Source: Janthinobacterium sp. PC23-8 (GTDB taxonomy: Bacteria; Pseudomonadota; Gammaproteobacteria; Burkholderiales; Burkholderiaceae_D). Taken from it: 64,000 bases of DNA. Location of the stretch: the NCBI RefSeq assembly GCF_002250505.1, contig NZ_NJGY01000002.1, positions 586,634 through 650,633 of the forward strand. Direction: 5' to 3'. The position numbers were made by a program, and so were the translations under genes. Below the pieces are notes generated by a model, which was not told where the DNA came from, made no database searches, and was given only the letters and a program-made list of their open reading frames with translations. Below are positions 3,001 to 31,342 of this stretch, piece by piece. How positions within the stretch are numbered: position 1 is the first letter of the stretch; each line of letters begins with the position of its first letter.

Positions 3001-6000
3001 CTACCTGCTGCCGACCCTGGCAACAGGCAGCGGCGTGATCACCGCCAAAACCATCACGCTCAATGCCCCTTCCATCAGCAAGGTCTACGACGGCACCCTG
3101 GCCTATTCGGCCAGCGCGGGCGATTTGTCCGCCCTGTCGGCGGCGCTGGTGCAAGGCGACACCGTCAGCGGCGCCGCCTTCAGCTATGCCGACAAGAACG
3201 CCGGCAATGGCAACAAGGCAGTCAACCTGACGCAAGCGCAAATCAGCGACGGCAATGGCGGCGCCAACTACAGCGTCACCCTGGCCGGCAACAGCAACAG
3301 CACGATTACCCCACGCGTGCTGAACGCCAGCGCCACCGGCGCCAATCGCGTGTACGACACCTCGACCAACGCCAGCGTCAGCCTGATTGACGACCGTATC
3401 GCCGGCGACGTGCTGACCTTGTCGAACAGCTCGGCCAGCTTTGCCGACAAGAATGCAGGCAGCAACAAGGCCGTCACCGTCAGCGGCATCGCCGCCGGCG
3501 GCGCGGATGCGGGCAATTACACGCTCGCCTCCGGCACCGCGACCACCACTGCCAGCATTACCCCGGCCACCTTGCAGGTGACGGGCGTGTCGGCGCAGGA
3601 CCGTGCCTACGATACCTCGCTTGCCGCCGGCCTGAGCGGCACCGCAGTGGTCACAGCCCTGGGCAGCGATATCGTCAAGGTCACCGGCACCGGCATCGGC
3701 CAGTTCCTTGATAAAAACGCCGGCAGCGGCAAGGCGATCACCGTCACCGGCTACGCCTCCAGCGACAGCAACTATGTGCTGGCGCAGCCGACCGGCTTGA
3801 GCGCCACCGTCACGCCGGCCGTGCTGGCCTTGTCGGGCCTGAACCCGGGCGTCTCGAAAACCTATGACGGCAGCACCAGGGTGGCGATCACGGGCGCGCC
3901 GACCGTCAGCGGCTTCGGCAATGAAGTGGTGACGGTGGGCGGCGTCGGCAGCGGCCAGTTCGCCGACAAAAATGCCGGCACCGGCAAGACCATCACGGTG
4001 TCCGGCTTGACCGCCAGCGACAGCAACTACGCCATCGGCCAGCAGGCCGGCCTGACGGGCACCATTGCGCCGGCCCAGCTGACCCTGGCCCCGGTCACTG
4101 CCGCCACGCGCAGCTACGACGGCACCAGCAATGCGCAGATCAATGCCGCCAGCTATGCCTTCACGGGCCTGGTCAGCGGCGATTCGGTCACCGTGAACAA
4201 GACGGCGGGCACCTTCGACAGCCGCAATGCGGGCAACCGCAGCGTAAGCATCGGCCTGGCGGCCGGCGACTATACGGCTGGCAACGGTACCGTGCTCGCC
4301 AACTACCTGCTGCCGACACTGGCAACAGGCAGCGGCGTGATCACCGCCAAAACCATCGTGCTCAATGCCCCTTCCATCAGCAAGGTCTACGATGGCACGC
4401 TGGCCTATTCGGCCAGCGCGGGCGATTTGTCCGCCCTGTCGGCGGCGCTGGTGCAAGGCGACACCGTCAGCGGCGCCGCCTTCAGCTATGCCGACAAGAA
4501 CGCCGGCAATGGCAACAAGGCAGTCAACCTGACGCAAGCGCAAATCAGCGACGGCAATGGCGGCGCCAACTACAGCGTCACCCTGGCCGGCAACAGCAAC
4601 AGCACGATTACCCCACGCGTGCTGAACGCCAGCGCCACCGGCGCCAATCGCGTGTACGACACCTCGACCAACGCCAGCGTCAGCCTGATTGACGACCGCA
4701 TCGCCGGCGACGTGCTGACCTTGTCGAACACTGCGGCCAGCTTTGCCGACAAGAATGCAGGCAGCAACAAGGTCGTCACCGTCAGCGGCATCGCCGCCGG
4801 CGGCGCAGATGCGGGCAATTACACGCTCGCCTCCGGTACCGCGACCACCACCGCCAGCATTACCCCGGCCACCTTGCAGGTGACGGGCGTGTCGGTACTG
4901 CAGCGCAGTTATGACCGCAGCCTGAACGCGGTATTGGGCGGCGCACCGACCGTCACGGCGCTGGGCACTGACGTGGTCAGCGTGGTGGGCACGGCCAGCG
5001 GCAGCTATGCCGACAAGAACGTGGGCAGCGGGAAGGCGGTGACGGTCAACGGGTATCGCTCCAGCGACAGCAACTACGTGCTGCTGCAGCCGACCGGCCT
5101 GACGGGTACCGTTACGCCAGCCGTGCTGCAGGTCAGCGGCTTGACCCTGGCGGCGGCCAAGACCTATGACGGCACGCGCAACGTGACGCTGTCGGGCACG
5201 GCGAGCGTCACGGGTCTGGACGGCGAAGTGGTGACGGTGGGCGGCAATGGCAGCGGCCAGTTCGCCGACAAAAATGTCGGCACGGGCAAGGTCATCACCC
5301 TGGTCGGCTACACCGCGAGCGACAGCAATTACGCCATCGGCCAGGAGCCGGGGCTGGTGGGCAGCATCACGCCTGCCGCGATCACGGTGACCGGCGTGCG
5401 CGCCAACGGCAAGAGCTTCGACGGCAACACCAGCGCCACCCTCAGCGGCGTGGGCGCCATCAATGTGATCGGCGCAGACGTGGTGACCCTGGGCGGCACC
5501 GCCAGCGCCAGCTTTGCCGACGCCACGGCCGGCACGGCCAAGCCGGTGACCGTCAGCGGCTATGCGCTCGCTGGCGCCGACGCCGGCAACTATGCCCTGC
5601 GCCAGCCGCAGGGCCTATCCGCCGATATCGCCGACACCGCCGTGCAAGTGCCGCCACCGGCGGTAGTGACGCCGCCACCGCTGCCGAGTCTGCCGCTGGC
5701 CGCACAGCGGGCGGCACCGGGCCTGAGCATGCCACCGCTCGGCAACTTGCCAGGCACCGGCACGGGCCTGAGCAGCGCGGCGCCGGCCGCCACGCCGGCC
5801 CCATCCAGCGCTGCGCCGGCCCCGTCCAGCGCAACATCGGCCACCACGCCGGCCCCAGCCAGCGCCACGCCGGCCCCGTCCAGCGCAGCATCGGCCGCCA
5901 CGCCGGCCCCAGCCAGCGACACGCCAGCCCCGTCCAGCGCAGCATCGGCCGCCACGCCGGCCCCAGCCAGCGACACGCCGGCCGCCACGCCAGCCCCGGC

Positions 6001-6352
6001 CAGCGCCACGCCGGCGGCGCAAGCCAATACGGCCGGCATCACGGTCGCGCTGGTACGTCCGCCGTCGTTGCAGCAAGGCGGCGCGATTACGGTGTCGGTG
6101 CCCAAGCAGATCGTCGACGCCGGCAATGGCTTCGGCTTCCCGCTGCCGGCGCAGGTAGTCGAAGCGGCCGCCGTCAACCGCGTGCCGGTGCAGGCGCAGC
6201 TGGCCGACGGCAGCGCGCTGCCGTCGTGGATCAGCTACAACACCGACAGCAAGTCGTTTGTGGTCACGCAGGTGCCCGGCGGCGCATTGCCGGTGCAGAT
6301 CGTGCTGGTGATCGGCGCCCAGCGCACCACCATGGTGGTCGCCGAACGCTGA
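2..6352 (+). CDS. Giant YDG-repeat secreted adhesin-like protein, 3' part
   Basis: The frame is open at the left edge, so the start and any secretion signal lie outside the window; about 2115 residues are seen. The visible part is almost wholly repetitive: roughly 92-residue units carrying a K-x-YDG motif near their start (VGKVYDG, ISKTYDG), then 434-residue higher-order units with YDG and ADKNAG motifs. These resemble the YDG/MBG-type domains of filamentous-haemagglutinin-like exoproteins, which form long beta-rich stalks on the cell surface. A low-complexity Pro/Ala/Ser linker (about 5.64-6.02 kb, built on TPAPAS and APSSA) precedes a compact non-repetitive end of about 110 residues finishing TTMVVAER. 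The role is probably adhesion or biofilm, exported by two-partner secretion; that rests on family resemblance because no partner gene is visible. A strong terminator follows the stop. Confidence 0.85.
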   Translation, partial: ANFTAGASTSLANYSLPTVATGSAAITPKALGASLSGVGKVYDGSTTAVLNGANYLLTGLVTGESASVSQTAGLYNSADVLGANSVSASLSGANFTAGASTSLANYSLPSVATGSASITAKALSATLSGVGKVYDGSTAATLTGANYQLTGLVAGESASVSQTAGLYNSADVLGANSVSASLSGANFTAGASTSLANYSLPTVATGSAAITAKPLAASLSGVGKVYDGNNSALLGAGNFNLSGFVGTQSASVTHTGGVYNGVNVATANSVTTSLSAGDFTAGAATTLSNYSLPTVATGSASITAKSLGATISGVSKVYDGGTAAALTGANYQLTGLVGGESASVSQTAGLYNSADVLGANSVSASLSGASFTAGASTSLANYSLPTVATGSAAITPKPLAASLTGTISKTYDGGNSALLGAGNFSLTGFVGTQSASVTHTGGVYNAVNVATANSVTASLSAGDFTAGAATTLSNYSLPTVATGSASITAKALGATLTGALGRSYDGTALASLTGSNFVLSGLAAGESINVAPLNGSYDSRNAGTRTVSATLAGSDFTAGSGTVLGNYVLPTSAAGTAVITPKAITLSAPVVSKVYDGTLAYSASAGDLSTLSAALVQGDTVSGATFSYADKNAGNGSKAVNLTQAQISDGNGGANYSVSLAGNSNSTITPRVLNASATGANRVYDTSTNASVSLIDDRIAGDVLTLSNSSASFADKNAGSNKLVTVSGIAAGGADAGNYTLASGTATTTASITPATLQVTGVSAQDRAYDTSLAAGLSGTAVVTALGSDIVKVTGTGIGQFLDKNAGSGKAITVTGYASSDSNYVLAQPTGLSATVTPAVLALSGLNPGVSKTYDGSTRVTITGAPTVSGFGNEVVTVGGVGSGQFADKNAGTGKTITVSGLTASDSNYAIGQQAGLTGTIAPAQLTLAPVTAATRSYDGTSNAQINAASYAFTGLVSGDSVNVVKTTGSFDSRNAGNRTVSIGLAAGDYTAGNGTVLANYLLPTLATGSGVITAKTITLNAPSISKVYDGTLAYSASAGDLSALSAALVQGDTVSGAAFSYADKNAGNGNKAVNLTQAQISDGNGGANYSVTLAGNSNSTITPRVLNASATGANRVYDTSTNASVSLIDDRIAGDVLTLSNSSASFADKNAGSNKAVTVSGIAAGGADAGNYTLASGTATTTASITPATLQVTGVSAQDRAYDTSLAAGLSGTAVVTALGSDIVKVTGTGIGQFLDKNAGSGKAITVTGYASSDSNYVLAQPTGLSATVTPAVLALSGLNPGVSKTYDGSTRVAITGAPTVSGFGNEVVTVGGVGSGQFADKNAGTGKTITVSGLTASDSNYAIGQQAGLTGTIAPAQLTLAPVTAATRSYDGTSNAQINAASYAFTGLVSGDSVTVNKTAGTFDSRNAGNRSVSIGLAAGDYTAGNGTVLANYLLPTLATGSGVITAKTIVLNAPSISKVYDGTLAYSASAGDLSALSAALVQGDTVSGAAFSYADKNAGNGNKAVNLTQAQISDGNGGANYSVTLAGNSNSTITPRVLNASATGANRVYDTSTNASVSLIDDRIAGDVLTLSNTAASFADKNAGSNKVVTVSGIAAGGADAGNYTLASGTATTTASITPATLQVTGVSVLQRSYDRSLNAVLGGAPTVTALGTDVVSVVGTASGSYADKNVGSGKAVTVNGYRSSDSNYVLLQPTGLTGTVTPAVLQVSGLTLAAAKTYDGTRNVTLSGTASVTGLDGEVVTVGGNGSGQFADKNVGTGKVITLVGYTASDSNYAIGQEPGLVGSITPAAITVTGVRANGKSFDGNTSATLSGVGAINVIGADVVTLGGTASASFADATAGTAKPVTVSGYALAGADAGNYALRQPQGLSADIADTAVQVPPPAVVTPPPLPSLPLAAQRAAPGLSMPPLGNLPGTGTGLSSAAPAATPAPSSAAPAPSSATSATTPAPASATPAPSSAASAATPAPASDTPAPSSAASAATPAPASDTPAATPAPASATPAAQANTAGITVALVRPPSLQQGGAITVSVPKQIVDAGNGFGFPLPAQVVEAAAVNRVPVQAQLADGSALPSWISYNTDSKSFVVTQVPGGALPVQIVLVIGAQRTTMVVAER
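113..1490 (+). repeat. Tandem 276-bp (92-residue) YDG units
   Basis: The GVGKVYDG-type motif recurs with starts at about 113, 389, 665 and 941, exactly 276 bp apart, then near 1220 with one extra codon. Units alternate between two subtypes, one with YNSADVLGANSVSASL and one with YNGVNVATANSV. Several copies are almost identical at DNA level, which indicates recent duplication or gene conversion. Confidence 0.9.
1771..4893 (+). repeat. 1302-bp near-perfect tandem repeat, about 2.4 copies
   Basis: Copy 1 runs from about 1771, copy 2 from about 3073, and a partial copy 3 from about 4375 to 4893. Matching landmarks (for example the short antisense frames at 1966, 3268 and 4570) are spaced exactly 1302 bp, or 434 codons. 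The copies differ by only scattered substitutions such as AGC/GCC swaps. Being in frame, gain or loss of a unit would change protein length without breaking the reading frame. Short-read assemblies could also collapse it. Confidence 0.92.
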
Positions 6353-6373
6353 TAGGGAGTAGCGGCATGAAGG

Positions 6374-6403
6374 GCGCGTCCTGCAAGGGACGCGCTTTTT
6401 TTT
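6374..6403 (+). terminator. Rho-independent terminator of the YDG-repeat gene
   Basis: GCGCGTCC, a 6-nt loop (TGCAAG) and GGACGCGC form a perfect 8-bp stem followed by eight T residues, about 20 nt after the stop codon. Confidence 0.93.
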
Positions 6404-6742
6404 CCGCCGGGATGAACTGCCCACGCTCGGCCCTGGCCCACGGAGGCGGCCGCATGTACGGCGCCGGCTGGGCCGCCGATTCGGCCGGCGAAGCCAGGCG
6501 CATGGTCATCGCGCGCGCAGGAATATCGACCACGCCGTGCTGGCCGATCTTTTCCGTGAAGCGCGCCCTGGCTTGCTCGGTAATTGGCGGCATTGCGGTT
6601 GCTGGCCTCGCCCCAATCGGGGTTTCCTTCCTGGCGGTGTTGGCGAGCTAAAACGGCCAATATCGGCGAGCACCGCGGCACTGTCAATCGAGCGGGGAAA
6701 GACGCACTGGCCGCCCTCCCCCTGCTTTACGACAGTTCGCTA
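6404..6742. other. Intergenic stretch, no supported gene
   Basis: This lies between the adhesin terminator and the convergent glycosidase gene. A minus-strand frame beginning near 6593 (MPPITEQARARF) has reasonable codon use for about 60 residues. However, it has no Shine-Dalgarno sequence, runs through the terminator hairpin and resembles nothing I recognise, so I do not call it. Confidence 0.4.
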
Positions 6743-8752
6743 TCAGTACGACAGGCCGTAGCCGAATTTGTACAGCGGCCGCGCCGTGTCATACGGCACG
6801 TCGGACTTCTGCGCCTGCACTTCGCCCATAGCCGATGGCAGCTCGAACGGCAGCTTGCCTTCCGGCTTGGCCTTGCCGGTCAACACGTCGAACAGCGCAC
6901 CGTCGCTGACGCCGAAGTTGCCGATAATGGCGCTGGCCTTGTCCTGCACGTTGCCGAGAATGGCCGGGCGGTCCAGGTAGACCGTAACCACGGTTTTCGG
7001 CGCCAATCTGGCGGCATTCTTGATCGCCTCGTAGCCGGCGTCGCCATCGATGAAATTGAGGCGGCCTTCGTGCTGCATGCTGCCGAAGATGTAGTTCGGG
7101 TGCAGGATTTCATACGGCGCAGCCACGCGCAGCAGGGCCACGTCGGCTTCCTGCGGGGTCGCCACCACAGTGTAGCCGTACTGGCGGGCGACGGCCGCGT
7201 CGATGCCGTACAAGTACACCTTCTTGACGGTGGCGGCCAGCGGCAGCACCTTGTCCTTGTTTTCCAGCAGCACCAGCGAACGGCGCTGGGCGTCCAGGCC
7301 GGCCGCGACAAAGTCGGCCTTGCCCACCGTGGCGGCGGCTTTTACCGTGTCGACAAACGGATGCTCGAACAGGCCCTGCCTGAATTTCTGCAACAGGATG
7401 CGACGCGCCGAAGCGTTGATGCGTGCCTCCGTCAGCTGGCCGCGCTGCACGGCTTGCGTCAGGTAAGGCGCTTCCGTCACGCCGCCGAACTGGTCCATGC
7501 CGGCATTGACGGCCTTGACATAGCGCTCGGCCTTGGTGGCGTTTTCCATGCCCCAAGGTGTGCCGAAACCGAAAAACGACGGCGCCACGCCGGCTGCGGT
7601 GCCGTTACGGCAGTTGGCGTCGCAGTCGGACGTGATGCCCCAGTCGGACAGGATCACGCCTTCGAAGCCGTATTTGCCGCGCAGCAGGTCGGTCAGCAGG
7701 GCCTTGCTGAAGCCGGCCCCCACCTGCTCCAGGGTGATGCCGTCGATGGTGACATTGCCGTCCGGCATGGCATAGGTCGGCATCACGGAGGCGGCCCTGG
7801 CGTTGAAGGCGCCCTCGAACGGTTTCACGTGATACGCAAAATTATTGCCCGGGTAGCTCATGTAGCGGCCATAGTAATTGTGGCCGTCAAAGCCCTCTTT
7901 GGTGGCGCCATAGCCGACCCAGTGCTTGACGACGGCCACCACGCTGCCGTCGTGCAGGCCGGTGTTGCCGTCCTGGAAGCCTTCGATATAATTCTGCACC
8001 ATGCGCTTGGCCAGTTCGGCGTCTTCCCCAAACGTGCCGTTGATGCGCGACCAGCGCGGCTCGGTGGCCAGGTCCGCCTGTGGCGACAGCGCCTGCGTGA
8101 TGCCGACGGCCAGGTATTCCTGGCGCGCGATATCGCCGAAGCGGCGCACCAGCGCGTTGTCGCCAATGGCCGCCAGGCCCAGGGTTTCAGGCCACTGCGA
8201 AAAGCCGTTGGTCGAGGTGCTGGCGCCCACCGAGTACTGGAAGTGGTGGCGCGGGTCGGTGCTGATCGACACCGGGATGCCGTGGCGCGTGGTTTCGCTC
8301 AGCGCCTGCACCTTGTTGTACTGCGCCGCCATATTGGCCGAGTCGCCGGCCATGCGGGTAATAAACGTATTGATGTACTGCTTGACGATCAGCTCTTGCA
8401 GGGCGGTGAGGTCGTAGCCGCTGCCCTGGCCGATGCCGGTCGGATCCGCCACGGTGGGCGCCGTGCCGTGCATCATCAGGCCGGCTTTTTCGTCGAGAGT
8501 CATGCGCGCGATCAGGTCGTCGGCGCGCGCCTCGGCCGTCAGGCGCCAGTCCTCGTAGGGGTCGATCTTGCCATTGCGGTTCATGTCCTTGAAGGTATAG
8601 CTGTCGACCTTGAGCTGGTTGTAGGTCGTGGTGCCGAATACGGGCTGGGTGTAGCCTGGGCCGTCGCTGTCGCTGCTGCCGCAGGCGGCAAGGGCGAGCG
8701 TGGCAACGCATCCGGCGACCACGCGGGTCATCGGTTTCAAAGTGCAATGCAT
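6743..8752 (-). CDS. Glycoside hydrolase family 3 lipoprotein (beta-glucosidase-like)
   Basis: Hydrolyses terminal beta-linked sugars from oligosaccharides, probably in the periplasm or anchored to the outer membrane. I start it at MHCTLKPM (669 residues) because AGGAG stands 6 nt upstream and it opens with a lipoprotein signal ending in the lipobox LAAC, lipidated Cys at residue 24. A longer reading from 8812 would bury the signal. A short MNRNGKIDPYEDWR segment, typical of this GH3 subgroup, follows near residues 57-70. The TIM-barrel domain carries the KH motif (about 276-277) and the nucleophile in GVILSDWG (Asp about 370). The C-terminal domain extends to KFGYGLSY. The length fits GH3 enzymes without a fibronectin III tail. 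It is divergent from an AraC regulator that probably controls it; the exact sugar is not predictable. Confidence 0.9.
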   Translation of the reverse strand: MHCTLKPMTRVVAGCVATLALAACGSSDSDGPGYTQPVFGTTTYNQLKVDSYTFKDMNRNGKIDPYEDWRLTAEARADDLIARMTLDEKAGLMMHGTAPTVADPTGIGQGSGYDLTALQELIVKQYINTFITRMAGDSANMAAQYNKVQALSETTRHGIPVSISTDPRHHFQYSVGASTSTNGFSQWPETLGLAAIGDNALVRRFGDIARQEYLAVGITQALSPQADLATEPRWSRINGTFGEDAELAKRMVQNYIEGFQDGNTGLHDGSVVAVVKHWVGYGATKEGFDGHNYYGRYMSYPGNNFAYHVKPFEGAFNARAASVMPTYAMPDGNVTIDGITLEQVGAGFSKALLTDLLRGKYGFEGVILSDWGITSDCDANCRNGTAAGVAPSFFGFGTPWGMENATKAERYVKAVNAGMDQFGGVTEAPYLTQAVQRGQLTEARINASARRILLQKFRQGLFEHPFVDTVKAAATVGKADFVAAGLDAQRRSLVLLENKDKVLPLAATVKKVYLYGIDAAVARQYGYTVVATPQEADVALLRVAAPYEILHPNYIFGSMQHEGRLNFIDGDAGYEAIKNAARLAPKTVVTVYLDRPAILGNVQDKASAIIGNFGVSDGALFDVLTGKAKPEGKLPFELPSAMGEVQAQKSDVPYDTARPLYKFGYGLSY

Positions 8753-8910
8753 GATTGTCTCCTGTATTTTTGTAGGTATCAAGGTCCGCCGTGCAGGCCG
8801 GCCTTGATGCAATATAACGTGAGAGTCCGTGAGTTTTTTGACTGCACGGAACAGCGTTTATACCGCCGAGAACAATTTTTGGCATTGATGTACGGTAAGC
8901 AACAAACAAC

Positions 8911-8932
8911 AGCACTTTCCAACAAAAGTGCT
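8911..8932. promoter_or_regulatory. Inverted repeat between the GH3 and AraC genes
   Basis: AGCACTTT and AAAGTGCT, perfect 8-bp arms with a 6-nt spacer, lie about 47 bp upstream of the AraC start in the shared divergent promoter region. This is a plausible regulator site. Being a palindrome rather than a direct repeat it is not the classic AraC layout, so the binding protein is uncertain. Confidence 0.5.
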
Positions 8933-8978
8933 AGTATTTGTGAAAAATTACTACAAGTGCGCAGACACTGGAGACACC

Positions 8979-10016
8979 ATGCATAAACCCGACACGCGGA
9001 CGGTTTCAAACCGCATTGCGCAGCAATGTGCGCGCGCCATGCAGGCCGACGGCCACGATCCCTTTGACTTTTTCCGGCAAACGGGCATCACGCCAGCGCA
9101 GCTGGACGAGCCTGGCGGGCGCATCAACGCCGAGCGGCACCGCCGCATGCTCGGCTACGCGCATCAGTTGCCGCCCCAGCGCGGCATCCTCGACATGGAC
9201 GTGACGCACTGGTTCGCGCATTTTTCCGGCCTGGCCCACGTCTGCTTCAACCGCCCTACCCTGCGCGGCGCGCTGTACGAGTTCCTGCGGCTGCGCGGCC
9301 TGATCGGCCAGTTCGATTTCATGCTGATGAACGAAAACGGCTTGTGGATAGAGATCGAGTACCTGTCCGAATTCTGCCCGGCCGGCGGCGCCATCCAGGC
9401 GCTGGCCAATTTTCGCTTGCTGTCCCTGGTCACGCGCGCCTATGACCAGGGCGCGACTACCGTGTTCCAGGCCGGCTTTCGCGGCGCCGCGCCGCACTTC
9501 GCGCGCGCCATCTCGGAATGCCTGGGTGCCCCCGCCACCTTCGGCCAGGCGCGCAACACCTTGCGCTTCCAGGCGTCCATGCTCGATGTACCGTTCGGCC
9601 AGTTCAACGCCACCGTGGCGCCGCACGCACTGCGCCACGCCCAGGCGCAGCTGCAAACGCTACAGGGCGCGCAGCTGTTTTCTGCGCGCGTGGAGCAGGC
9701 CATCATCGATTTGCTGGGCCAGCAGGACGGCGCCGCCGCCGACGGCACGCGGCTGCTGCCGGCCCTGTGCGACGGCCTGGCGATGAATCACTGGACCTTG
9801 CGGCGCCAGTTGCAACAGGAACAGACCTCGTTTCGCGCCCTGGAGCTGCGCGCCAAAAGCCGCGAGTCGCGCCGCCTGCTGCGCGAAACGACCTTGAGCG
9901 TGGCCGAAATCGGCGACCGCCTGGGCTTTTCCTCGCAAAGCGCATTCACCCGCTTTTTCAAGAACCAGTTCGAACTGCCGCCGGCGCGCTACCGCCAGGA
10001 TACGGCCGGGACCTAG
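8979..10016 (+). CDS. AraC-family transcriptional regulator
   Basis: A DNA-binding regulator of 345 residues. The start at MHKPDTRTVS is preferred over an upstream in-frame start because GGAG lies 5 nt before it. The N-terminal region, about residues 20-200, resembles the arabinose-binding-like ligand domain of the AraC subgroup that includes OruR/ArgR-like activators. The C-terminal 80 residues hold two helix-turn-helix units, with the diagnostic second one around LGFSSQSAFTRFFKNQF. It is transcribed away from the GH3 glycosidase with a 226-bp shared region, which suggests it senses a sugar or breakdown product and controls that gene. The inducer cannot be read from the sequence. Confidence 0.9.
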   Translation: MHKPDTRTVSNRIAQQCARAMQADGHDPFDFFRQTGITPAQLDEPGGRINAERHRRMLGYAHQLPPQRGILDMDVTHWFAHFSGLAHVCFNRPTLRGALYEFLRLRGLIGQFDFMLMNENGLWIEIEYLSEFCPAGGAIQALANFRLLSLVTRAYDQGATTVFQAGFRGAAPHFARAISECLGAPATFGQARNTLRFQASMLDVPFGQFNATVAPHALRHAQAQLQTLQGAQLFSARVEQAIIDLLGQQDGAAADGTRLLPALCDGLAMNHWTLRRQLQQEQTSFRALELRAKSRESRRLLRETTLSVAEIGDRLGFSSQSAFTRFFKNQFELPPARYRQDTAGT

Positions 10017-26106: not shown

Positions 26107-26802
26107 ATGGATTCATTTATCGGCACCATCATGAGCGTGGGCTTTTCCTTTGTTCCGCGCGGCTGGATGAGCTGCAACGGCCAGTTAATAAGCATCAATC
26201 AGAACCAGGCCTTGTACTCCGTGCTCGGCACGCAATACGGCGGCGACGGCCAGAATACCTTTGGCCTGCCCGACCTGCGCGGGCGCGTGGCCGTCGGCGC
26301 CTCCGTCGGCGCAGCGGGACGCATCAACGCCACGATGGGCGTCGCCGGCGGCAACGCGGCCACCACCATCAGCACGCAAGGCAATGGCACGGCCAGCGTC
26401 ACCCTGGGCGTGGCCAACCTGCCGCCCCACAACCATGTGGCCACGTTTTCGGCTTCCGGCGGCACCCCGTCCACGGTGGAGATCAAGGTCAGCAACGACG
26501 CGGCGACCTCGGAAGCGCCGCTGGCCGGCGGCTATCTGGCGACGGGCGCGAGCGGCGGCAACAGCCAGCCCATGCTGTATGCGGCCACCGTCGACCAGGG
26601 CACCACCAAACTCAATGCGGCCACCGCCACCATCACCGGTGGCGGCGGCAGTGGCAGCGTGACCATCGGCAACACCGGTAGCGGCCAGACGCTGGCGGCG
26701 CCAGTCACGGTCAACACCATTTTCTCCGCGCCCGCCGTGCCGCCATTCCAGGGGGTGCAGTACATCATCTGCGTCGAGGGCATCTACCCGACCAGGAATT
26801 GA
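26107..26802 (+). CDS. Phage-tail-collar (microcystin-dependent type) protein A
   Basis: 231 residues. The first 60 form a tail-collar domain: GTIMSVGFSFVPRGWMSCNG, then LYSVLGTQYGGDGQNTFGLP and DLRGRVAVG. This domain occurs at the tips of phage tail fibres and in bacterial MdpB-like proteins. The middle is Gly/Thr/Ala-rich with LPPHNHVATF, and the end PPFQGVQYIICVEGIYPTRN is typical. No signal peptide. An AAGGGG site precedes ATG. It is the first of two tandem paralogues beside a methyltransferase, GNAT, hydroxylase and sulfotransferase. The length is normal for stand-alone bacterial collar proteins. The role is unknown; no other tail genes are present, so it is not a prophage remnant in the usual sense. 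Confidence 0.88.
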   Translation: MDSFIGTIMSVGFSFVPRGWMSCNGQLISINQNQALYSVLGTQYGGDGQNTFGLPDLRGRVAVGASVGAAGRINATMGVAGGNAATTISTQGNGTASVTLGVANLPPHNHVATFSASGGTPSTVEIKVSNDAATSEAPLAGGYLATGASGGNSQPMLYAATVDQGTTKLNAATATITGGGGSGSVTIGNTGSGQTLAAPVTVNTIFSAPAVPPFQGVQYIICVEGIYPTRN

Positions 26803-26906
26803 TTGACCAGTCCGCGATGCGTAACGCAGCAAGAACAGTCATGCCACCAGATTCCATGGTGGCGCAAACGCCCCGTTGCAGTACCTCACAATGAAAGGCG
26901 ACAAAC

Positions 26907-27602
26907 ATGGACCCATTGCTCGGCAGCATTATCGCCGTCGGCTTTAATTTCGTTCCCCGCGGCTGGATGAGCTGCGCGGGCCAATTACTCAGCATTAACG
27001 GGTACAGCGCCCTGTACGCCCTGCTCGGCACGCAATACGGCGGCGACGGCCAGAATACCTTTGCCCTGCCCGACCTGCGCGGGCGCGTGCCCGTCGGCAC
27101 CGCCCTGGGCATAGGGGGACGCATCAATGCCGCCATGGGCACGACCGGCGGCGTGGCGGGGGCAAGCATCACCAGCACCGGCACCGGCAGCGCCGCCGTC
27201 ACTCTGGCCGTGGCCAACCTGCCCTCGCACAACCATGCGGCGACCTTTTCGGCTACGGGCGGCAGCGCCTCCACGGTAGAGTTCAAGGTCAGCAACGACG
27301 CGGCGACCTCGGAAATGCCGCTGGCCGGCGGCTACCTGGCGACAGGCGCGAGCGGCGGCAACAGTCAGCCCATGCTGTATGCAAGCACGGTCGATCAGGG
27401 CACCACCACACTCAACGCGGCCACCGCCACCCTCAGCGGCGGTGGCGGCAGTGGCAGCGTGAGCGTTGCCAATACGGGCACCGGCGCCACGCTGAACGCA
27501 CCGGTCACTGTCACCAGCACCGCTTCCGTGCCCACGGTGCCGCCGTTCCAGGGGGTGCAGTACATCATTTGCGTGGAGGGGGTCTTTCCGAGCCGTAACT
27601 GA
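26907..27602 (+). CDS. Phage-tail-collar protein B, tandem paralogue
   Basis: 231 residues, colinear with protein A throughout. The collar domain (FVPRGWMSCAGQLLSINGYS, YGGDGQNTFALPDLRGRV), LPSHNHAATF motif and PPFQGVQYIICVEGVFPSRN end are all conserved. The central stretch FKVSNDAATSEMPLAGGYLA is near-identical to its partner at DNA level, suggesting gene conversion. Differences cluster in the early Gly/Ala/Thr-rich segment (residues about 65-95), where surface specificity may lie. It starts 104 bp after protein A and converges on the methyltransferase gene, 94 bp away. Confidence 0.88.
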   Translation: MDPLLGSIIAVGFNFVPRGWMSCAGQLLSINGYSALYALLGTQYGGDGQNTFALPDLRGRVPVGTALGIGGRINAAMGTTGGVAGASITSTGTGSAAVTLAVANLPSHNHAATFSATGGSASTVEFKVSNDAATSEMPLAGGYLATGASGGNSQPMLYASTVDQGTTTLNAATATLSGGGGSGSVSVANTGTGATLNAPVTVTSTASVPTVPPFQGVQYIICVEGVFPSRN

Positions 27603-27696
27603 TTTTTGGCGATGGGGCGCGCCGACGCCGCCCTGGCTGGCGATGCAATACCTGAGCGCCACCGAGGGCGATTACCCGATGCGCAAGGCAAGCCGC

Positions 27697-28686
27697 TCAG
27701 CCGCGCACGACGCAGGCCAGTCCCGGCGCGCGTCCCAGCCGGTACGAAAAGTCCAGCGTTTCACCGCCCTTGAGCTGCGGCTTGCCGGGCAGGTGCAAGG
27801 GCAGGTTCAGGCTGCAATCGTAGTCGTGCAGCACGATCTGGCCACGCACGCGGATGCGCGTGAGCAGTTTCGCGGCCGTGCCCGCCTGCGCCGGCACGGC
27901 AACGCTGGCGGCCGGCAGGAACGTCTCTTGCCGATCCCGCCATGCCAGGATGGCGGCCGCATCGATCTCGAAAATGCGGCCCCAGTCGGCGCAAGGCTGG
28001 TCCGGCTGCTTGCGCGCCGCGCCCAGGTGCACGGCGATCGCCTCGGGCACCAGCGCCGCCGCCGGCGCCTGCACGTACAGATTGCGCATGATGGCCACCT
28101 GCGGCTCCTTGCCCAGCGCCGTGTTCATGGTCTCGCTGACGATCACGTCGGGCGTGGCGTCCGGCGCGATGCGGTAGCTGGCGGCGTCACAGCAGAGATA
28201 CTGCGCCACGTGCGCCTGGTAACCGAGGTCATGGATCAGGGCGCGCGCATCATCGAGCGCCGCCTGGTGCACTTCGAGCAGGGTAAATTGCACCTGTTGC
28301 GGCGAAAACAGCGCCATCAGCGGCAGCGCCAGCAAGGCGAACGGGCCGCAGCCGGCGTACAGCACCGACACCGGCCGGCCCTGCGCCAGTTCAAGCGCGG
28401 CGCTGATGGCCGACGCCAGGCCCTGGACAAAGGCGGCCGTGCGCAGCGGTTCGCGCGCACACAGCGCCGCCTGCACCGGCGAGATCGCCCAGCCGCTGTC
28501 GAGCGTGCTCTCACCGTCGGTCATGCGGCCGGAAGGCTCCATCGACAGGCGCGAATGGCGCTCGACAAACACGCGCAACTGGCCGGTTTCGGCGATCAGG
28601 GAGGTGAGCGGGCGAGCCGGATCGGCGATGGCGCGGGCGATGGCCGCCAGTTCGTCCCGCTCCTTGCGCAAGACGGCGCCGTTCAT
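27697..28686 (-). CDS. PRMT-like SAM-dependent methyltransferase
   Basis: 329 residues from MNGAVLRKERD; the start overlaps the upstream gene's stop (ATGA). The class I Rossmann methyltransferase core has motif I VLYAGCGPFALLALPLMA (about 109-126), an acidic residue after the second strand (LLEVHQAAL, Glu138) and SETMNTALGKE (184-194). The two glutamates, E185 and E194, are nine residues apart in the same setting as the double-E loop of protein arginine methyltransferases. A C-terminal beta-rich part (about 230-329) also fits the PRMT layout. It probably methylates a protein or peptide; arginine specificity is inferred. The operon partner is a DUF6916-like protein and the neighbours are collar proteins and other modifying enzymes. 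Confidence 0.75.
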   Translation of the reverse strand: MNGAVLRKERDELAAIARAIADPARPLTSLIAETGQLRVFVERHSRLSMEPSGRMTDGESTLDSGWAISPVQAALCAREPLRTAAFVQGLASAISAALELAQGRPVSVLYAGCGPFALLALPLMALFSPQQVQFTLLEVHQAALDDARALIHDLGYQAHVAQYLCCDAASYRIAPDATPDVIVSETMNTALGKEPQVAIMRNLYVQAPAAALVPEAIAVHLGAARKQPDQPCADWGRIFEIDAAAILAWRDRQETFLPAASVAVPAQAGTAAKLLTRIRVRGQIVLHDYDCSLNLPLHLPGKPQLKGGETLDFSYRLGRAPGLACVVRG

Positions 28687-28994
28687 GACAACGATACCTG
28701 ATAGCACTGCTTGCCCAACTCGATTTGCCTGGGCGGCTGCGGTGTGCTGATCGGCCACAGATACAGTTCCAGCCGCCCCAGTTGCGGGTGGTCGAGAAAA
28801 TAATTGCCTTCGGCCAGCAGCAGTTCGGCGGGACCGGCAAACACCATGCTCAGCGGCGTGCGGAATTGCTCCGGCAGCCCGCGCCGCGGCAATTCCTTCA
28901 CTTCGCTCAGCGCCAAAGGCACCAGGCCGGCGGCGGTATGCGCCATGAAAACGGTCTCGGCAAAGGGGCCGAGCAGGTCGAGGGTAATATTCAT
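28683..28994 (-). CDS. Small DUF6916-like protein
   Basis: 103 residues from MNITLDLLGPFAE (GGA 7 nt upstream; an in-frame ATG at 29006 is possible). The pattern FAETVFMAHTAAGLVPLALS, then SMVFAGPAELLLAEGNYFLD and LGRLELYLWPI is that of a small beta-barrel-like domain. I recall it as DUF6916, found beside tail-collar proteins, but this name is from memory. Function unknown; it may be a chaperone, scaffold or recognition partner. The stop overlaps the methyltransferase start by ATGA, so the two are translationally coupled. It is divergent from the GNAT-hydroxylase-sulfotransferase operon with a 94-bp shared region. Confidence 0.6.
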   Translation of the reverse strand: MNITLDLLGPFAETVFMAHTAAGLVPLALSEVKELPRRGLPEQFRTPLSMVFAGPAELLLAEGNYFLDHPQLGRLELYLWPISTPQPPRQIELGKQCYQVSLS

Positions 28995-29088
28995 CGGGAA
29001 ATCCATGAAATGTGATTGCAAGACGAGGTGAATGTTGGCAGCATAGCAAATAGACCACCATTTGAACCACCCTTTTTTTGGAGCACCG

Positions 29089-29580
29089 GTGTATTTCCTC
29101 CCCTCCCCTTTCCACTTGCGCGAAGTCGATCGCGCCAGCGACGACGACCGGGCGTTCGTGCGCGCGCTATATCACGCCAGCCGCGACGACTTGCGGCAGC
29201 TGCAAGCCGATCCCGCCATCATCGAGCAGTTGATCACGATGCAGCAAAACGTGCAGGAACATGGTTGTCAGCAGGCTTATCCGCAAGCGCGCCAGTGGCT
29301 GATCGAACGGCACGGCGCACCGATCGGCCGCCTGATCGTCGATCCGGGCGAGCAGGCGCTGCGCGTGGTCGACATCACGCTGCTGCCGCAAGCGCAGGGC
29401 CAGGGCGCCGGCGCCGTCGTGCTCGCAGGCTTGCAAGCGCATGCGGCGGCGCAGGGCTGCGCCGTCAGCCTGGCCGTCAACCAGCACAATGCGCCAGCGC
29501 GCCGGCTGTATGCGCGCCTGGGCTTCGCCCTCGACAGCGAGGACGAGGTCCAGCAAGAACTGCGCTGGAGCGCGCCATGA
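29089..29580 (+). CDS. GNAT-family N-acetyltransferase
   Basis: 163 residues from a GTG start (MYFLPSPFHLREVDRASDDD), chosen because GGAG lies 5 nt upstream; an earlier in-frame TTG lacks a site. The GNAT fold is shown by strand VVDITLLPQAQGQGAGAVVL (motif A with the Q-G-Q-G-A acetyl-CoA loop, about 95-114) and the late helix NAPARRLYARLGF (about 140-152). It transfers an acetyl group to an amine; the acceptor is unknown. It is the first gene of a tight operon whose stop overlaps the next start (ATGA), with a hydroxylase and a sulfotransferase following. Confidence 0.85.
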   Translation: MYFLPSPFHLREVDRASDDDRAFVRALYHASRDDLRQLQADPAIIEQLITMQQNVQEHGCQQAYPQARQWLIERHGAPIGRLIVDPGEQALRVVDITLLPQAQGQGAGAVVLAGLQAHAAAQGCAVSLAVNQHNAPARRLYARLGFALDSEDEVQQELRWSAP

Positions 29581-30290
29581 CCGCGCCCAGCACCTGGCTG
29601 CGGCTGCCGCTGCGCTTCGACGTAGCGCGCATGCAACAGGAAAGCGACCAGTTCACCTCCACCGACTGGATCAGCCACTTCAATACCGGCGCGTATGAAA
29701 ACGGCTGGAGCTGCCTGCCGCTGCGCTCGCACGGCGGCGACCCGCTGCATATCATGCCGCTCGACGACGCCGTCTACGCCGACACGCCGCACCTGGCGCG
29801 CTGCCCTTGCCTGCGGCAAGCGATCGCCGGCATGGACTGCGAGGTAGGCGCGGCCCGCCTGATGGCGCTCGACGCCGGCGCCGTGATCCGCGAACACCGC
29901 GACGCCGGCACGGCGCTGGCCGACGGCGTCACGCGCATCCATATTCCCATCCATACCTCGCCGCAAGTGCTGTTTCGCATCGATGGCGAGCAGGTGCACT
30001 TTTACGCCGGCCATGCCTGGTATATGGACGCCAGTTGCCGCCACGCCGTGGAAAACCGTGGCGATGCAGCGCGCGTGCACCTGGTGCTCGACTGCGTCAC
30101 CAACGACTGGCTCGAAAGCTTGTTTGCCAGCGCCGGCTTCGTGCCGAAAGCGCCGCCCAAGTATGGCGACCCCAGCATCAACGACGGCAATGTGCGGGAA
30201 ATCATCGCCCGCCTGCGCGCCAGCGGCGAGCCGGCAGCGCTGGCCGTGGCCGAACGGCTCGCCGCGCTCGAGCGCGGCGCGGTGCCATGA
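29577..30290 (+). CDS. Aspartyl/asparaginyl beta-hydroxylase-like dioxygenase
   Basis: 237 residues, a cupin-type Fe(II)/2-oxoglutarate oxygenase related to the AspH domain that hydroxylates Asp or Asn side chains in proteins. Visible ligands are H107 and D109 (IREHRDAG) and H156 (DASCRHAVEN). R166 (ARVHLVLDC) is in place to bind 2-oxoglutarate. The N-terminal part (TDWISHFNTGAYENGWSCL) is family-typical. The iron motif here is H-R-D, whereas animal AspH is known for lacking the carboxylate; many bacterial relatives have it. It is soluble, with no signal. ATGA overlaps on both sides couple it to the GNAT and the sulfotransferase. The substrate is probably a protein or peptide. Confidence 0.82.
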   Translation: MTAPSTWLRLPLRFDVARMQQESDQFTSTDWISHFNTGAYENGWSCLPLRSHGGDPLHIMPLDDAVYADTPHLARCPCLRQAIAGMDCEVGAARLMALDAGAVIREHRDAGTALADGVTRIHIPIHTSPQVLFRIDGEQVHFYAGHAWYMDASCRHAVENRGDAARVHLVLDCVTNDWLESLFASAGFVPKAPPKYGDPSINDGNVREIIARLRASGEPAALAVAERLAALERGAVP

Positions 30291-31342
30291 CCGCGCACCA
30301 GGGTTTCGCGCTGCAGGAGCGCCAGCTGACCAGGGGCGAACAGGTGGCCTGGCGCGAGGGCATGGACCTGCGCCACTGGTATCCGCTCACCGCCACCTGC
30401 CACGATGGCGACATCACGCTGGCCTGGCGCGACATGACGGACATCTCCTTTACCGACTCCTTCTTTGAAAATACCCTGGCGCGCCAGCCGCGCGAACAGC
30501 GCCGCGTCTGCCATGCGCCGGCGCGGGCGCTGGCGCAATTCGCCCAAGGCGAGGCGGCGCTGGCGCCGAGCGCCTTCGTCTTCCATGTCTCGCGCTGCGG
30601 CTCGACCCTGCTGACGCAGTTGCTGGCGTTGCTGCCGCAGTGCATCGTCATGTCCGAGCCGCCCATCATCGACTCGCTGCTGCGCCTGCACCATGAGGCG
30701 GGCGCCGCCGCTGCCGGCGACACCGTGGCGCTGCTGCGCCAGGCCATGCTGGCCATGGGCCAGCGCCGCACGGGGCGCGAAAGCCATTTTGTCATCAAGT
30801 TCGACTGCTGGCATCTGCACAGCCTGGACTTGCTGCGCCAGGCCTTCCCCGGCACGCCCTGCCTGTTCCTGTACCGCGCGCCGCTGGCGGTGCTGTCCTC
30901 GCACCACCGCCAGCGCGGCCCGCAGATGGTGCCAGGCCTGATCCATCCTGCCCTGCTGCCGCTGCCGGCCAGCAGGCTTGCGCCCGGCGACCTCGACGCC
31001 TACACGGCCCTGGTGCTGGAAGGTTTTTATCGGCAGGCGCGCGTCCATGCGGTGGCCGGGCGGCTGAGGTTGGTCAACTACAGCCAGTTGCCCGCCATCG
31101 TATTCACGGAACTGCTGGACTTGCTGGGGCTAGCCTGCACTGCCCGGCAACGCGACGCGATGCGCCAGCGTTCGCAATCTCACTCCAAATATACGGGCAA
31201 CGCCTACCGCGGCGATCCGGGGCTGCGGCAACCGGAACACGAAGCGCGGCTGGCCCAACTGGCGGCCAGCCTGGCGCCGGCGTATGCGGCGCTGGAACAG
31301 GGCAGATTGGGTGGCGCCAGCACAAATGTCATGGAAATATAA
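30287..31342 (+). CDS. Sulfotransferase family protein
   Basis: 351 residues, PAPS-dependent sulfotransferase. The 5'-phosphosulfate loop is FHVSRCGSTLLTQLL (SRCGSTLL at 102-109), and the 3'-phosphate region is LYRAPLAVLSSHHRQRG near 200-217. The C-terminal QSHSKYTGNAYRG is typical of the bacterial subgroup. The first 90 residues form an extra N-terminal part (LRHWYPLTATCHDGDITLAW) that may recognise the substrate. It transfers sulfate to a hydroxyl group, such as tyrosine or a carbohydrate. It is the last gene of the GNAT-hydroxylase-sulfotransferase operon (ATGA overlap). The hydroxylase could in principle create the hydroxyl that is sulfated; this is inference. Confidence 0.85.
   Translation: MTAHQGFALQERQLTRGEQVAWREGMDLRHWYPLTATCHDGDITLAWRDMTDISFTDSFFENTLARQPREQRRVCHAPARALAQFAQGEAALAPSAFVFHVSRCGSTLLTQLLALLPQCIVMSEPPIIDSLLRLHHEAGAAAAGDTVALLRQAMLAMGQRRTGRESHFVIKFDCWHLHSLDLLRQAFPGTPCLFLYRAPLAVLSSHHRQRGPQMVPGLIHPALLPLPASRLAPGDLDAYTALVLEGFYRQARVHAVAGRLRLVNYSQLPAIVFTELLDLLGLACTARQRDAMRQRSQSHSKYTGNAYRGDPGLRQPEHEARLAQLAASLAPAYAALEQGRLGGASTNVMEI

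What the first reader, a model, noticed from the sequence alone, without database searches (positions are those of the whole stretch)
26107..31342. Putative modification cassette built around tail-collar proteins
Two tandem collar proteins are flanked by four enzymes that normally modify proteins or peptides (PRMT-like methyltransferase, GNAT, AspH-like hydroxylase, sulfotransferase) and a small DUF6916-like protein. Start-stop overlaps (ATGA) tie DUF6916 to the methyltransferase and the GNAT, hydroxylase and sulfotransferase to one another, with a 94-bp divergent promoter between the two operons. No other phage genes are present. A system that methylates, acetylates, hydroxylates and sulfates a surface or secreted collar protein would be new to me. 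A small-molecule product is the alternative.
Basis: partly seen in the sequence, partly recalled or inferred. Interest (0 to 1): 0.78.

Follow-up and report, generated by a model that had tools for sequence, protein, structure and literature searches.

The report
Modifying enzymes paired with tail-tip proteins
A bacterium carries small proteins that resemble the tip of a virus tail, next to a set of enzymes that add chemical groups, and the same pairing recurs in distant bacteria, which suggests that the enzymes finish or tune these proteins, although no modification has been shown.

Summary
Gene content, coordinates and ATGA overlaps are as described. Tested on relatives, the linkage is real and old. 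In 299 Pseudomonadota genomes, 40 of 43 strong hits of this GNAT subfamily and 34 of 37 DUF6916 hits lie within 3 kb of a collar gene. A collar-collar-GNAT fusion exists. A Pseudoalteromonas replicon carries AspH, the window-type methyltransferase, GNAT, DUF6916 and three collars in a row. In the genus, all 23 genomes with strong collars have the GNAT, although in 15 it lies at least 98 kb away or on another contig; 4 of 17 others have it. In 20 loci chosen by collar alone, 11 of 11 with leaderless collars and 0 of 8 with signal-like leaders have GNAT or DUF6916. I read this as a phage-free locus in which a dedicated GNAT, probably an N-terminal acetyltransferase, and optional hydroxylase, sulfotransferase and methyltransferase mature leaderless collars. 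Against it: enzyme clusters without collars at the same chromosomal site, AspH-sulfotransferase pairs without collars, nearest solved AspH relatives that hydroxylate proline, and no direct evidence of any modification. Partly supported.

The parts
26107..26802 (+). Collar protein 1, 231 aa, no leader peptide, HxH motif
   Evidence: PF07484 E 7e-28; start at the domain (MDSFIGTI); profile A4 matches T4 gp12 chains 1ocy/1pdi at E 4e-8 to 1e-7
26907..27602 (+). Collar protein 2, 231 aa, 74% identical to collar 1, no leader peptide
   Evidence: PF07484 E 4e-27; alignment A4
27697..28686 (-). Class I methyltransferase-like protein, 329 aa (PRMT-like not established)
   Evidence: Methyltransf_25 E 0.005, below cut-off; relatives next to collars in L099, L120, L133
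28683..28994 (-). DUF6916 protein, 103 aa, near-constant neighbour of collars elsewhere
   Evidence: PF21880 E 4e-16; 34 of 37 hits in 299 genomes within 3 kb of a collar
28995..29088 (.). 94-bp divergent gap between the two operons; promoter not identified
   Evidence: sequence; scan found no promoter-like site
29089..29580 (+). GNAT acetyltransferase, 163 aa, GTG start with GGAG upstream
   Evidence: PF00583 E 3e-12 (on the frame from 29062); the two best solved matches of profile A1 are named N-terminal acetyltransferases
29577..30290 (+). Asp/Asn (or Pro) hydroxylase-like 2-oxoglutarate oxygenase, 237 aa, HxD...H kept
   Evidence: PF05118 E 9e-19; invariant H107, D109, H156 in A5; nearest solved: proline hydroxylases
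30287..31342 (+). Sulfotransferase, 351 aa, SRCGSTL loop kept
   Evidence: PF13469 27.9 bits; invariant SRCGSTL in A6

Best explanation
This is a chromosomal, phage-free locus for making a modified tail-tip-like protein. Shown: the collars start directly at their domain, without a leader; the GNAT subfamily and DUF6916 accompany such leaderless collars in most loci examined and none of the signal-type collars examined; AspH, methyltransferase and sulfotransferases are optional additions. Inferred: the GNAT acetylates the collar N-terminus in the cytoplasm, because the collars are Lys-poor and mostly begin with M-A/S/T/D/E, and the GNAT's best solved relatives are N-terminal acetyltransferases. 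AspH adds a hydroxyl that the sulfotransferase then sulfates, an order suggested by their fusion in some genomes. The methyltransferase adds a further mark. DUF6916 is an adaptor or chaperone for collars that do not use Sec. The product acts outside the cell, often with a giant exoprotein, as a binding or adhesion tip; in the window genome the giant would have to be encoded elsewhere. My estimates: enzymes functionally coupled to the collars 0.8; GNAT acting on the collars 0.55; all four enzymes acting on the collars 0.3.
For: Linkage: 40 of 43 GNAT hits of 95 bits or more and 34 of 37 DUF6916 hits within 3 kb of a collar in 299 genomes. Fusions: collar-collar-GNAT, 559 aa, L085; AspH-ST in L153 and L037. 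Whole set conserved: L133 Pseudoalteromonas has AspH-MTase-GNAT-DUF6916-collar x3; 7 of 40 genus genomes have collar+MTase+DUF6916+GNAT+AspH+ST together (window, L143, L145, L146, L147, L148, L163). Co-occurrence: in 40 genus genomes all 23 with strong collars have the GNAT against 4 of 17 others (Fisher 2e-7); in 11 of the 23 the two are at least 98 kb apart and in 4 on other contigs. Leader test in 20 loci chosen by collar hit alone: 11 of 11 leaderless have GNAT or DUF6916, 0 of 8 with signal-like leaders. Decay: in G403 (L162), without strong collars, GNAT, AspH, ST and MTase all appear broken. N-termini A/S/T/G/D/E/N in 104 of 110 collars against 299 of 602 other genes; all collars Lys-free in 5 of 52 GNAT loci. 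APS kinase, which makes the sulfate donor, sits in cassettes L155 and L157.
Against: No modification of any collar has been observed. Enzyme sets stand without collars at the same chromosomal site in the genus: MTase-GNAT-AspH-ST in G092, G417, G426, G407 and G048 (GNAT of G048 seen at ORF level only), GNAT-AspH-ST in G402, broken MTase plus the others in G419. G407, G393 and G400 have the GNAT without strong collars. Six of 61 leaderless-collar loci have neither GNAT nor DUF6916 (L004, L060, L099, L120, L123, L130). AspH+ST occur in G097 with no collar found in the genome (L096), away from the collars in G306 (L097), and fused beside an IPTL-CTERM protein with no collar within 12 kb in Diaphorobacter (L132). 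Only 4 of 11 strong AspH hits are within 3 kb of a collar, three more within about 10 kb. The methyltransferase is rare: 4 of 150 genomes, window included. Nearest solved AspH relatives hydroxylate proline. Second residues of related collars are not independent. Profiles A1, A3 and A5 were built from collar-linked members.
Confidence: 0.5

Rival explanations
1. The enzymes modify the giant exoprotein (DUF4347/cadherin, TPS-type or autotransporter), and the collars are co-encoded tip or accessory proteins of that exoprotein.
For: A giant Thr/Ser-rich frame lies in 37 of 52 GNAT-bearing loci by my filter; four giants tested give DUF4347+cadherin, TPS+ESPR+YDG, TIG/Ig+autotransporter, and one with no Pfam match. 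An AspH-ST fusion sits beside an IPTL-CTERM protein without a collar (L132).
Against: The window has no giant next to the cassette; the nearest seen, a 4517-codon frame, ends about 20 kb upstream. Collars with signal-like leaders sit beside giants yet have no GNAT or DUF6916 (L048, L049, L050, L054). Six cassettes have lasso-type genes and no giant by my filter. The one GNAT fusion seen is to collars; fusions of GNAT to giants were not searched for.
Confidence: 0.2
2. The enzymes make a small molecule, such as a hydroxylated, sulfated and acetylated amino acid or peptide, that the collars bind, carry or display.
For: Nearest solved AspH relatives are proline hydroxylases. The enzyme set occurs without collars at its site. 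Six collar cassettes adjoin lasso-type genes: asparagine synthase, PqqD, sulfotransferase and HprK-like.
Against: No biosynthetic core enzyme, carrier protein or transporter was found among the window cassette's genes. Such a role does not explain the fusion of GNAT to collars or the retention of the GNAT with strong collars genome-wide.
Confidence: 0.2
3. A remnant of a prophage, tailocin or contractile injection system that kept only its fibre tips, with unrelated enzymes beside it.
For: The collar domain is of phage type: the profile matches T4 gp12 and PHROGs tail families.
Against: No other tail gene among the window cassette or its tested neighbours. The set recurs in another class, and collars plus GNAT on a Deinococcus plasmid. 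The window collar found no close relative in viral contigs, and window DUF6916 no match in 50,697 phage records.
Confidence: 0.05

Closest known systems
Bacteriophage T4 short tail fibre gp12 (collar domain PF07484)
   Same: Profile A4 of these collars matches the gp12 chains 1ocy, 1pdi, 5iv5 (E 4e-8 to 1.5e-7) after a long tail fibre, 8kec (E 1e-11); HxH motif in 119 of 120 collars.
   Different: Stand-alone chromosomal or plasmid genes, 1 to 3 in a row, no fibre shaft and no other tail genes seen; the leaderless form usually has GNAT or DUF6916 nearby (55 of 61 loci, biased sample).
Microcystin-dependent protein / 'tail fiber protein' annotations (COG4675, name recalled)
   Same: Public records label such genes 'tail fiber protein' (S. 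meliloti, Deinococcus, Comamonas).
   Different: That label is an annotation; no tested function was found in the searches made. The GNAT, DUF6916 and giant partners are not part of it.
N-terminal acetyltransferases (RimI and archaeal/eukaryotic Nat types)
   Same: Of 27 solved matches to the GNAT profile at E 1e-6 or better, 8 are named N-terminal, N-alpha, amino-terminal or ribosomal-protein-alanine acetyltransferases, including the two best.
   Different: The GNAT is linked to or fused with collars; it is far below the RimI equivalog cut-off (33.9 against 86.4 bits).
Dedicated maturation enzymes of secreted proteins (HlyC of RTX toxins, HMW1C of HMW adhesins; recalled, not tested)
   Same: Modifying enzymes encoded beside an exported surface protein.
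   Different: Different enzymes, several chemistries at once, and the leaderless collar is the constant partner.
Lasso peptide clusters with PqqD, transglutaminase-like protease, asparagine synthase, HprK-like kinase and sulfotransferase
   Same: Such genes adjoin the collar cassette in six loci.
   Different: None was found among the window cassette's genes.

Membership tests
Phage tail, tailocin or contractile injection system | Other tail genes (tube, sheath, baseplate) in the cluster | tested here: not met
   Pfam of ten proteins and PHROGs of the seven cassette proteins give only collar matches among tail families
Collar-domain proteins (PF07484) | Match to PF07484 above its cut-off | tested here: met
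   96.8 and 94.2 bits against 24
N-terminal acetyltransferase | GNAT sequence with closest solved relatives among Nat enzymes | tested here: met
   Profile A1 best hits 6wqb, 6wqc (E 4e-16); RimI 9mto 8e-10; 8 of 27 matches so named
N-terminal acetyltransferase | Acetylation of a protein N-terminus | not testable with these tools
   needs mass spectrometry
Protein arginine methyltransferase | Significant match to PRMT sequences or fold | tested here: inconclusive
   PRMT7 E 0.11; structure model unusable, pLDDT 32.7
Aspartyl/asparaginyl hydroxylase family (PF05118) | Pfam match and HxD...H metal ligands | tested here: met
   68.3 bits against 22.6; invariant H107, D109, H156 in nine sequences
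Aspartyl/asparaginyl hydroxylase family (PF05118) | Acts on Asp/Asn of a protein | not testable with these tools
   nearest solved relatives are proline hydroxylases
Sulfotransferase | Pfam match and PAPS-binding loop | tested here: met
   27.9 against 27 bits; SRCGSTL invariant in 8 sequences (motif meaning recalled)
RiPP or lasso cluster | Precursor peptide with PqqD/RRE, protease and cyclase beside it | tested here: not met
   no such enzyme among the cassette's genes and tested neighbours; ORFs under 80 aa were not surveyed in the window
Known anti-phage defence system | PADLOC models for the components | tested here: not met
   only a weak MTase hit to mads_2, E 3e-6, 24.5 bits

The most novel reading that the evidence does not exclude
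A widespread bacterial surface system, derived from a phage tail tip, in which leaderless collar proteins are N-terminally acetylated by a dedicated GNAT and, in lineages like this one, also hydroxylated, O-sulfated and methylated by interchangeable cassette enzymes, then leave the cell by a route that uses DUF6916 instead of Sec and are displayed with giant exoproteins as tunable recognition tips. Some DUF6916 proteins carry Tat-like leaders, which would let folded collars hitch-hike on Tat.
Probability: 0.25. Interest if true: 0.88.

Novelty: categorically new. Interest (0 to 1): 0.72.

Why it matters
If right, many 'tail fiber proteins' in bacterial genomes are not phage debris but parts of a conserved surface system with its own acetyltransferase and a swappable set of modifying enzymes. 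It would give DUF6916 a role, explain the pairing of a hydroxylase with a sulfotransferase, and make the chemistry of bacterial surface tips testable. The novelty label rests on failed membership tests and on ten searches of an open-access library; subscription papers were not covered.

Tried and rejected
Prophage, tailocin or injection-system remnant: rejected. Chance neighbourhood: rejected for GNAT and DUF6916, less firmly for AspH and ST, which also occur alone. Lysine acetylation of collars as the general rule: disfavoured, since every collar is Lys-free in 5 of 52 GNAT loci. Defence system: no PADLOC support.

Limits of counts: one search scored at most 11 candidates per genome and cut its list of matches, so a collar may be missed. 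The 20 loci left out the collar hits of four genomes of genus g6 (G006, G049, G073, G093; 2 to 21 hits each) and one further hit in G063. L046 was counted as leaderless because an internal ATG at 7404 starts the domain, although the gene caller chose an earlier start. Leaders were judged by a crude hydropathy rule; two of the eight signal-like cases (L047, L052) look doubtful by eye. The 55 of 61 against 0 of 12 locus table includes loci picked because they had a GNAT. The 52 GNAT loci include the window (L115) and one locus twice (L100, L125). Of the 23 genus genomes with strong collars, 13 were read and their collars start at the domain; the other 10 were not read. Gene calls come from my own script, with known misses (the GNAT in L139 and DUF6916 in L145 were found at ORF level only). 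Of 26 family genomes with the hydroxylase, 20 were examined by stretch or coordinates: 11 have a collar in the cassette, 9 do not (8 of them in the window's genus); 6 were not examined.
Full report
What is there. Two tandem collar genes (26107-26802, 26907-27602) are followed by a DUF6916-methyltransferase pair on the other strand (28994 down to 27697), and a GNAT-hydroxylase-sulfotransferase operon runs away from it (29089-31342). All three start-stop overlaps are in the sequence. The divergent gap is 94 bp if the GNAT starts at GTG 29089, which has a GGAG ahead of it; no promoter-like site was found. The nearest neighbours are an AroP-type permease, a protein without Pfam match and a PAS-GAF-GGDEF protein. 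The window genome has two collars and one strong hit each for GNAT, hydroxylase, DUF6916, methyltransferase and sulfotransferase.

Is the linkage conserved? Yes. I built profiles of the collars (A4), GNAT (A1), DUF6916 (A3), hydroxylase (A5) and sulfotransferase (A6) and searched 299 Pseudomonadota genomes (239 for A6). Collars occur in 76 of 299, the GNAT subfamily (E at or below 1e-15) in 57, DUF6916 in 32, the hydroxylase (E at or below 1e-8) in 19, the sulfotransferase (E at or below 1e-10) in 11 of 239. Of 43 GNAT hits of 95 bits or more, 40 lie within 3 kb of a collar (misses in G260, G167, G363); of 18 weaker ones, 2 by eye (G114, G126). Of 37 DUF6916 hits, 34 lie within 3 kb of a collar (misses in G167, G147 and G213). 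The hydroxylase is linked less tightly: of 11 hits of 180 bits or more, 4 lie within 3 kb (G000, G154, G235, G297), 2 within 6 kb (G120, G284), 1 at 10 kb (G288) and 4 elsewhere. Still, 10 of the 11 genomes hold a collar somewhere (G097 does not); a random draw would give 10 or more with probability 6e-6 if kinship is ignored. Of 9 sulfotransferase hits of 226 bits or more, 6 lie within 5 kb of a collar (G000, G120, G154, G235, G284, G288, by eye), and all 9 genomes also have the strong hydroxylase. The window's methyltransferase is rare: 4 of 150 genomes match, the window included, one of them (G148) within 2 kb of a collar, G213 with two copies on contigs without one, G115 marginal.

The cassette beyond the window. 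Many loci hold 1 to 3 collars, DUF6916, the GNAT and, beside them, a giant Thr/Ser-rich, Arg-poor protein. Of 52 GNAT-bearing loci in my collection (the window and one duplicate included), 43 have DUF6916 and 37 a giant by my filter. Four giants were scanned: one is DUF4347 plus cadherin, one TPS-secreted with ESPR and YDG domains, one TIG/Ig repeats with an autotransporter domain, one without a match. Named examples with collars and GNAT are Sinorhizobium meliloti pB, Azospirillum lipoferum, Comamonas antarctica and, in another phylum, Deinococcus sp. KNUC1210. Six loci have a lasso-type gene set (asparagine synthase, PqqD, sulfotransferase, HprK-like kinase) and no giant by my filter.

The enzymes. 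In L133 (Pseudoalteromonas sp. NC201) the order is hydroxylase, methyltransferase of the window kind (E 6e-33), GNAT, DUF6916, three collars, a subtilase, a giant, all on one strand. In L099 two such methyltransferases, a second 2-oxoglutarate oxygenase, the hydroxylase and a formyltransferase precede a collar and a giant; in L120 a sulfotransferase, a methyltransferase and a gene that resembles the formyltransferase by eye do. Neither of these two has the GNAT or DUF6916, so they count against a fixed set; a formyltransferase could stand in for the GNAT, which is a guess. Two cassettes of the family carry an APS kinase (PF01583, E 3e-53 and 6e-48), the enzyme that makes the sulfate donor. The hydroxylase and sulfotransferase are fused in L153 (545 aa, both domains by Pfam) and L037. 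In L085 two collars and the GNAT form one 559-aa protein. These fusions are the strongest hints that GNAT works with collars and that the sulfotransferase works after the hydroxylase.

Genus test. In 40 genomes of the window's genus, 23 have strong collars (140 bits or more), and all 23 have the GNAT; of the other 17, 4 have it (Fisher 2e-7). In the 13 of these 23 genomes that I read, the collars start at the domain. Nine genomes have only weaker collar hits, and one of the nine (G403) has the GNAT. In 11 of the 23 the GNAT is 98 to 183 kb from the collars and in 4 on another contig, so the pairing is not mere proximity. The full linked set (collar, methyltransferase, DUF6916, GNAT, hydroxylase, sulfotransferase) is in 7 of 40: the window, L143, L145, L146, L147, L148 and L163 (six further methyltransferase genomes are excluded by the distances). 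In others the enzymes stand at a site beside a GMC-type dehydrogenase without collars (L139-L142, L159), without or with a broken methyltransferase (L149, L150), or the GNAT stands alone there (L164, L165). In the five such genomes whose collar locus I read, the collars and DUF6916 lie elsewhere beside a giant and without a GNAT (L043, L044, L167, L168, L170). L163 shows the same site with collars and DUF6916 present. Of the four GNAT genomes without strong collars, G403 has a cluster in which GNAT, hydroxylase, sulfotransferase and methyltransferase all appear broken (L162), G407 has the whole enzyme set in a 210-contig assembly, and G393 and G400 have a lone GNAT. For the methyltransferase, 17 of 18 genomes with a strong hit have strong collars against 6 of 22 without (Fisher 2e-5).

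Leader test. Collars fall into two kinds. In 20 loci chosen only by a PF07484 hit, 11 hold collars that start at the domain and all 11 have GNAT or DUF6916; 8 hold collars with a 25-34 residue extension that my rule calls signal-like and none has either; one phage-like collar has neither. In the whole, biased collection 55 of 61 leaderless loci and 0 of 12 signal-type loci have one of the two; of the six leaderless exceptions, one (L060) lies in a genome whose GNAT is 2.5 Mb away, and one (L123) on a 4-kb contig. Signal-type collars can still sit beside a giant (L048, L049, L050, L054). So a giant does not predict the GNAT, leaderless collars do. The rule is a crude hydropathy test, and two of the eight cases (L047, L052) look doubtful by eye.

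How it may work. The GNAT alignment keeps what I recall as the acetyl-CoA loop, and the two best solved relatives of its profile are named N-terminal acetyltransferases. In GNAT loci 104 of 110 collars have A, S, T, G, D, E or N at position 2 (299 of 602 other genes do), with Asp or Glu in 29%; collars are Lys-poor (0.98% against 3.3%), and in 5 of 52 loci every collar lacks Lys. The N-terminal amine is therefore the likelier target; the sequences are related, so this is a hint, not a test. A cytoplasmic N-terminal acetyltransferase could not mark collars whose leader is cut off, which fits the leader test. DUF6916 stays with the collars even where the GNAT has moved away (L043, L044, L167, L168, L170). 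Some DUF6916 proteins carry Tat-like leaders (L035, L036, L071, L081; L072), a possible route for leaderless collars. The window's own DUF6916 has no leader, so this step is the least certain.

Against the reading. No modification is shown. The hydroxylase and sulfotransferase occur without collars in G097, away from them in G306, and fused beside an IPTL-CTERM protein in Diaphorobacter. Of 20 family genomes with the hydroxylase that I examined (26 found), 9 have no collar in the cassette, 8 of them in the window's genus. Lower-scoring hydroxylases sit in other settings (L101-L104, L134). The nearest solved hydroxylases act on proline. The methyltransferase cannot be placed among PRMTs. The giant exoprotein and a small molecule remain candidate substrates.

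Verdict. That the enzymes modify the collars is the best single explanation, more so for the GNAT than for the others. I found no described system of this kind, within the limits of the library searched (listings only).

Noticed in passing
window -7201 to 6349 (L112 plus window): A 4517-codon Thr/Ser-rich open frame with a POTRA/FhaC-looking gene (recalled by eye) at L112 10866-12410 ends about 20 kb upstream of the cassette; it may be the exoprotein partner of this genome.
   Followed up: partly
L005, L058, L063, L075, L077, L085: Lasso-type gene sets (asparagine synthase, PqqD, sulfotransferase, HprK-like kinase, in L075 a transglutaminase-like protein) adjoin collar cassettes that lack a giant by my filter; short ORFs in L005 (12799-12951) and L075 (7135-7320) both end in GY.YGS.
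   Followed up: partly
L035 6697-7113, L036 6914-7291, L071 8803-9255, L081 7078-7482, L072 8072-8521: DUF6916 proteins with Tat-like twin-arginine leaders, in L035, L072 and L081 together with a second DUF6916 gene.
   Followed up: partly
L105 7036-7308, L106 6807-7079: Stand-alone DUF6916 genes without a collar nearby, next to what look by eye like 2-oxoacid dehydrogenase genes, in G147 and G167.
   Followed up: no
L134 (Asticcacaulis sp. DW145) 3905-9979: A TonB-dependent receptor, a sulfotransferase, an Asp/Asn hydroxylase and a larger sulfotransferase annotated in a row: the hydroxylase-sulfotransferase pairing in a different setting.
   Followed up: no
L162 (G403) 5198-7575: All four enzyme genes appear broken in a genome that has only a weaker collar hit (110 bits), whose leader was not examined.
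   Followed up: partly
L098 and L067 (G223): Hydroxylase and sulfotransferase follow the end of a giant at one contig edge, while collar, DUF6916 and GNAT lie near a giant that runs off another contig edge; possibly one locus split by the assembly.
   Followed up: no
window 27697-28686: Weak match of the methyltransferase to PADLOC mads_2 (E 3e-6).
   Followed up: no
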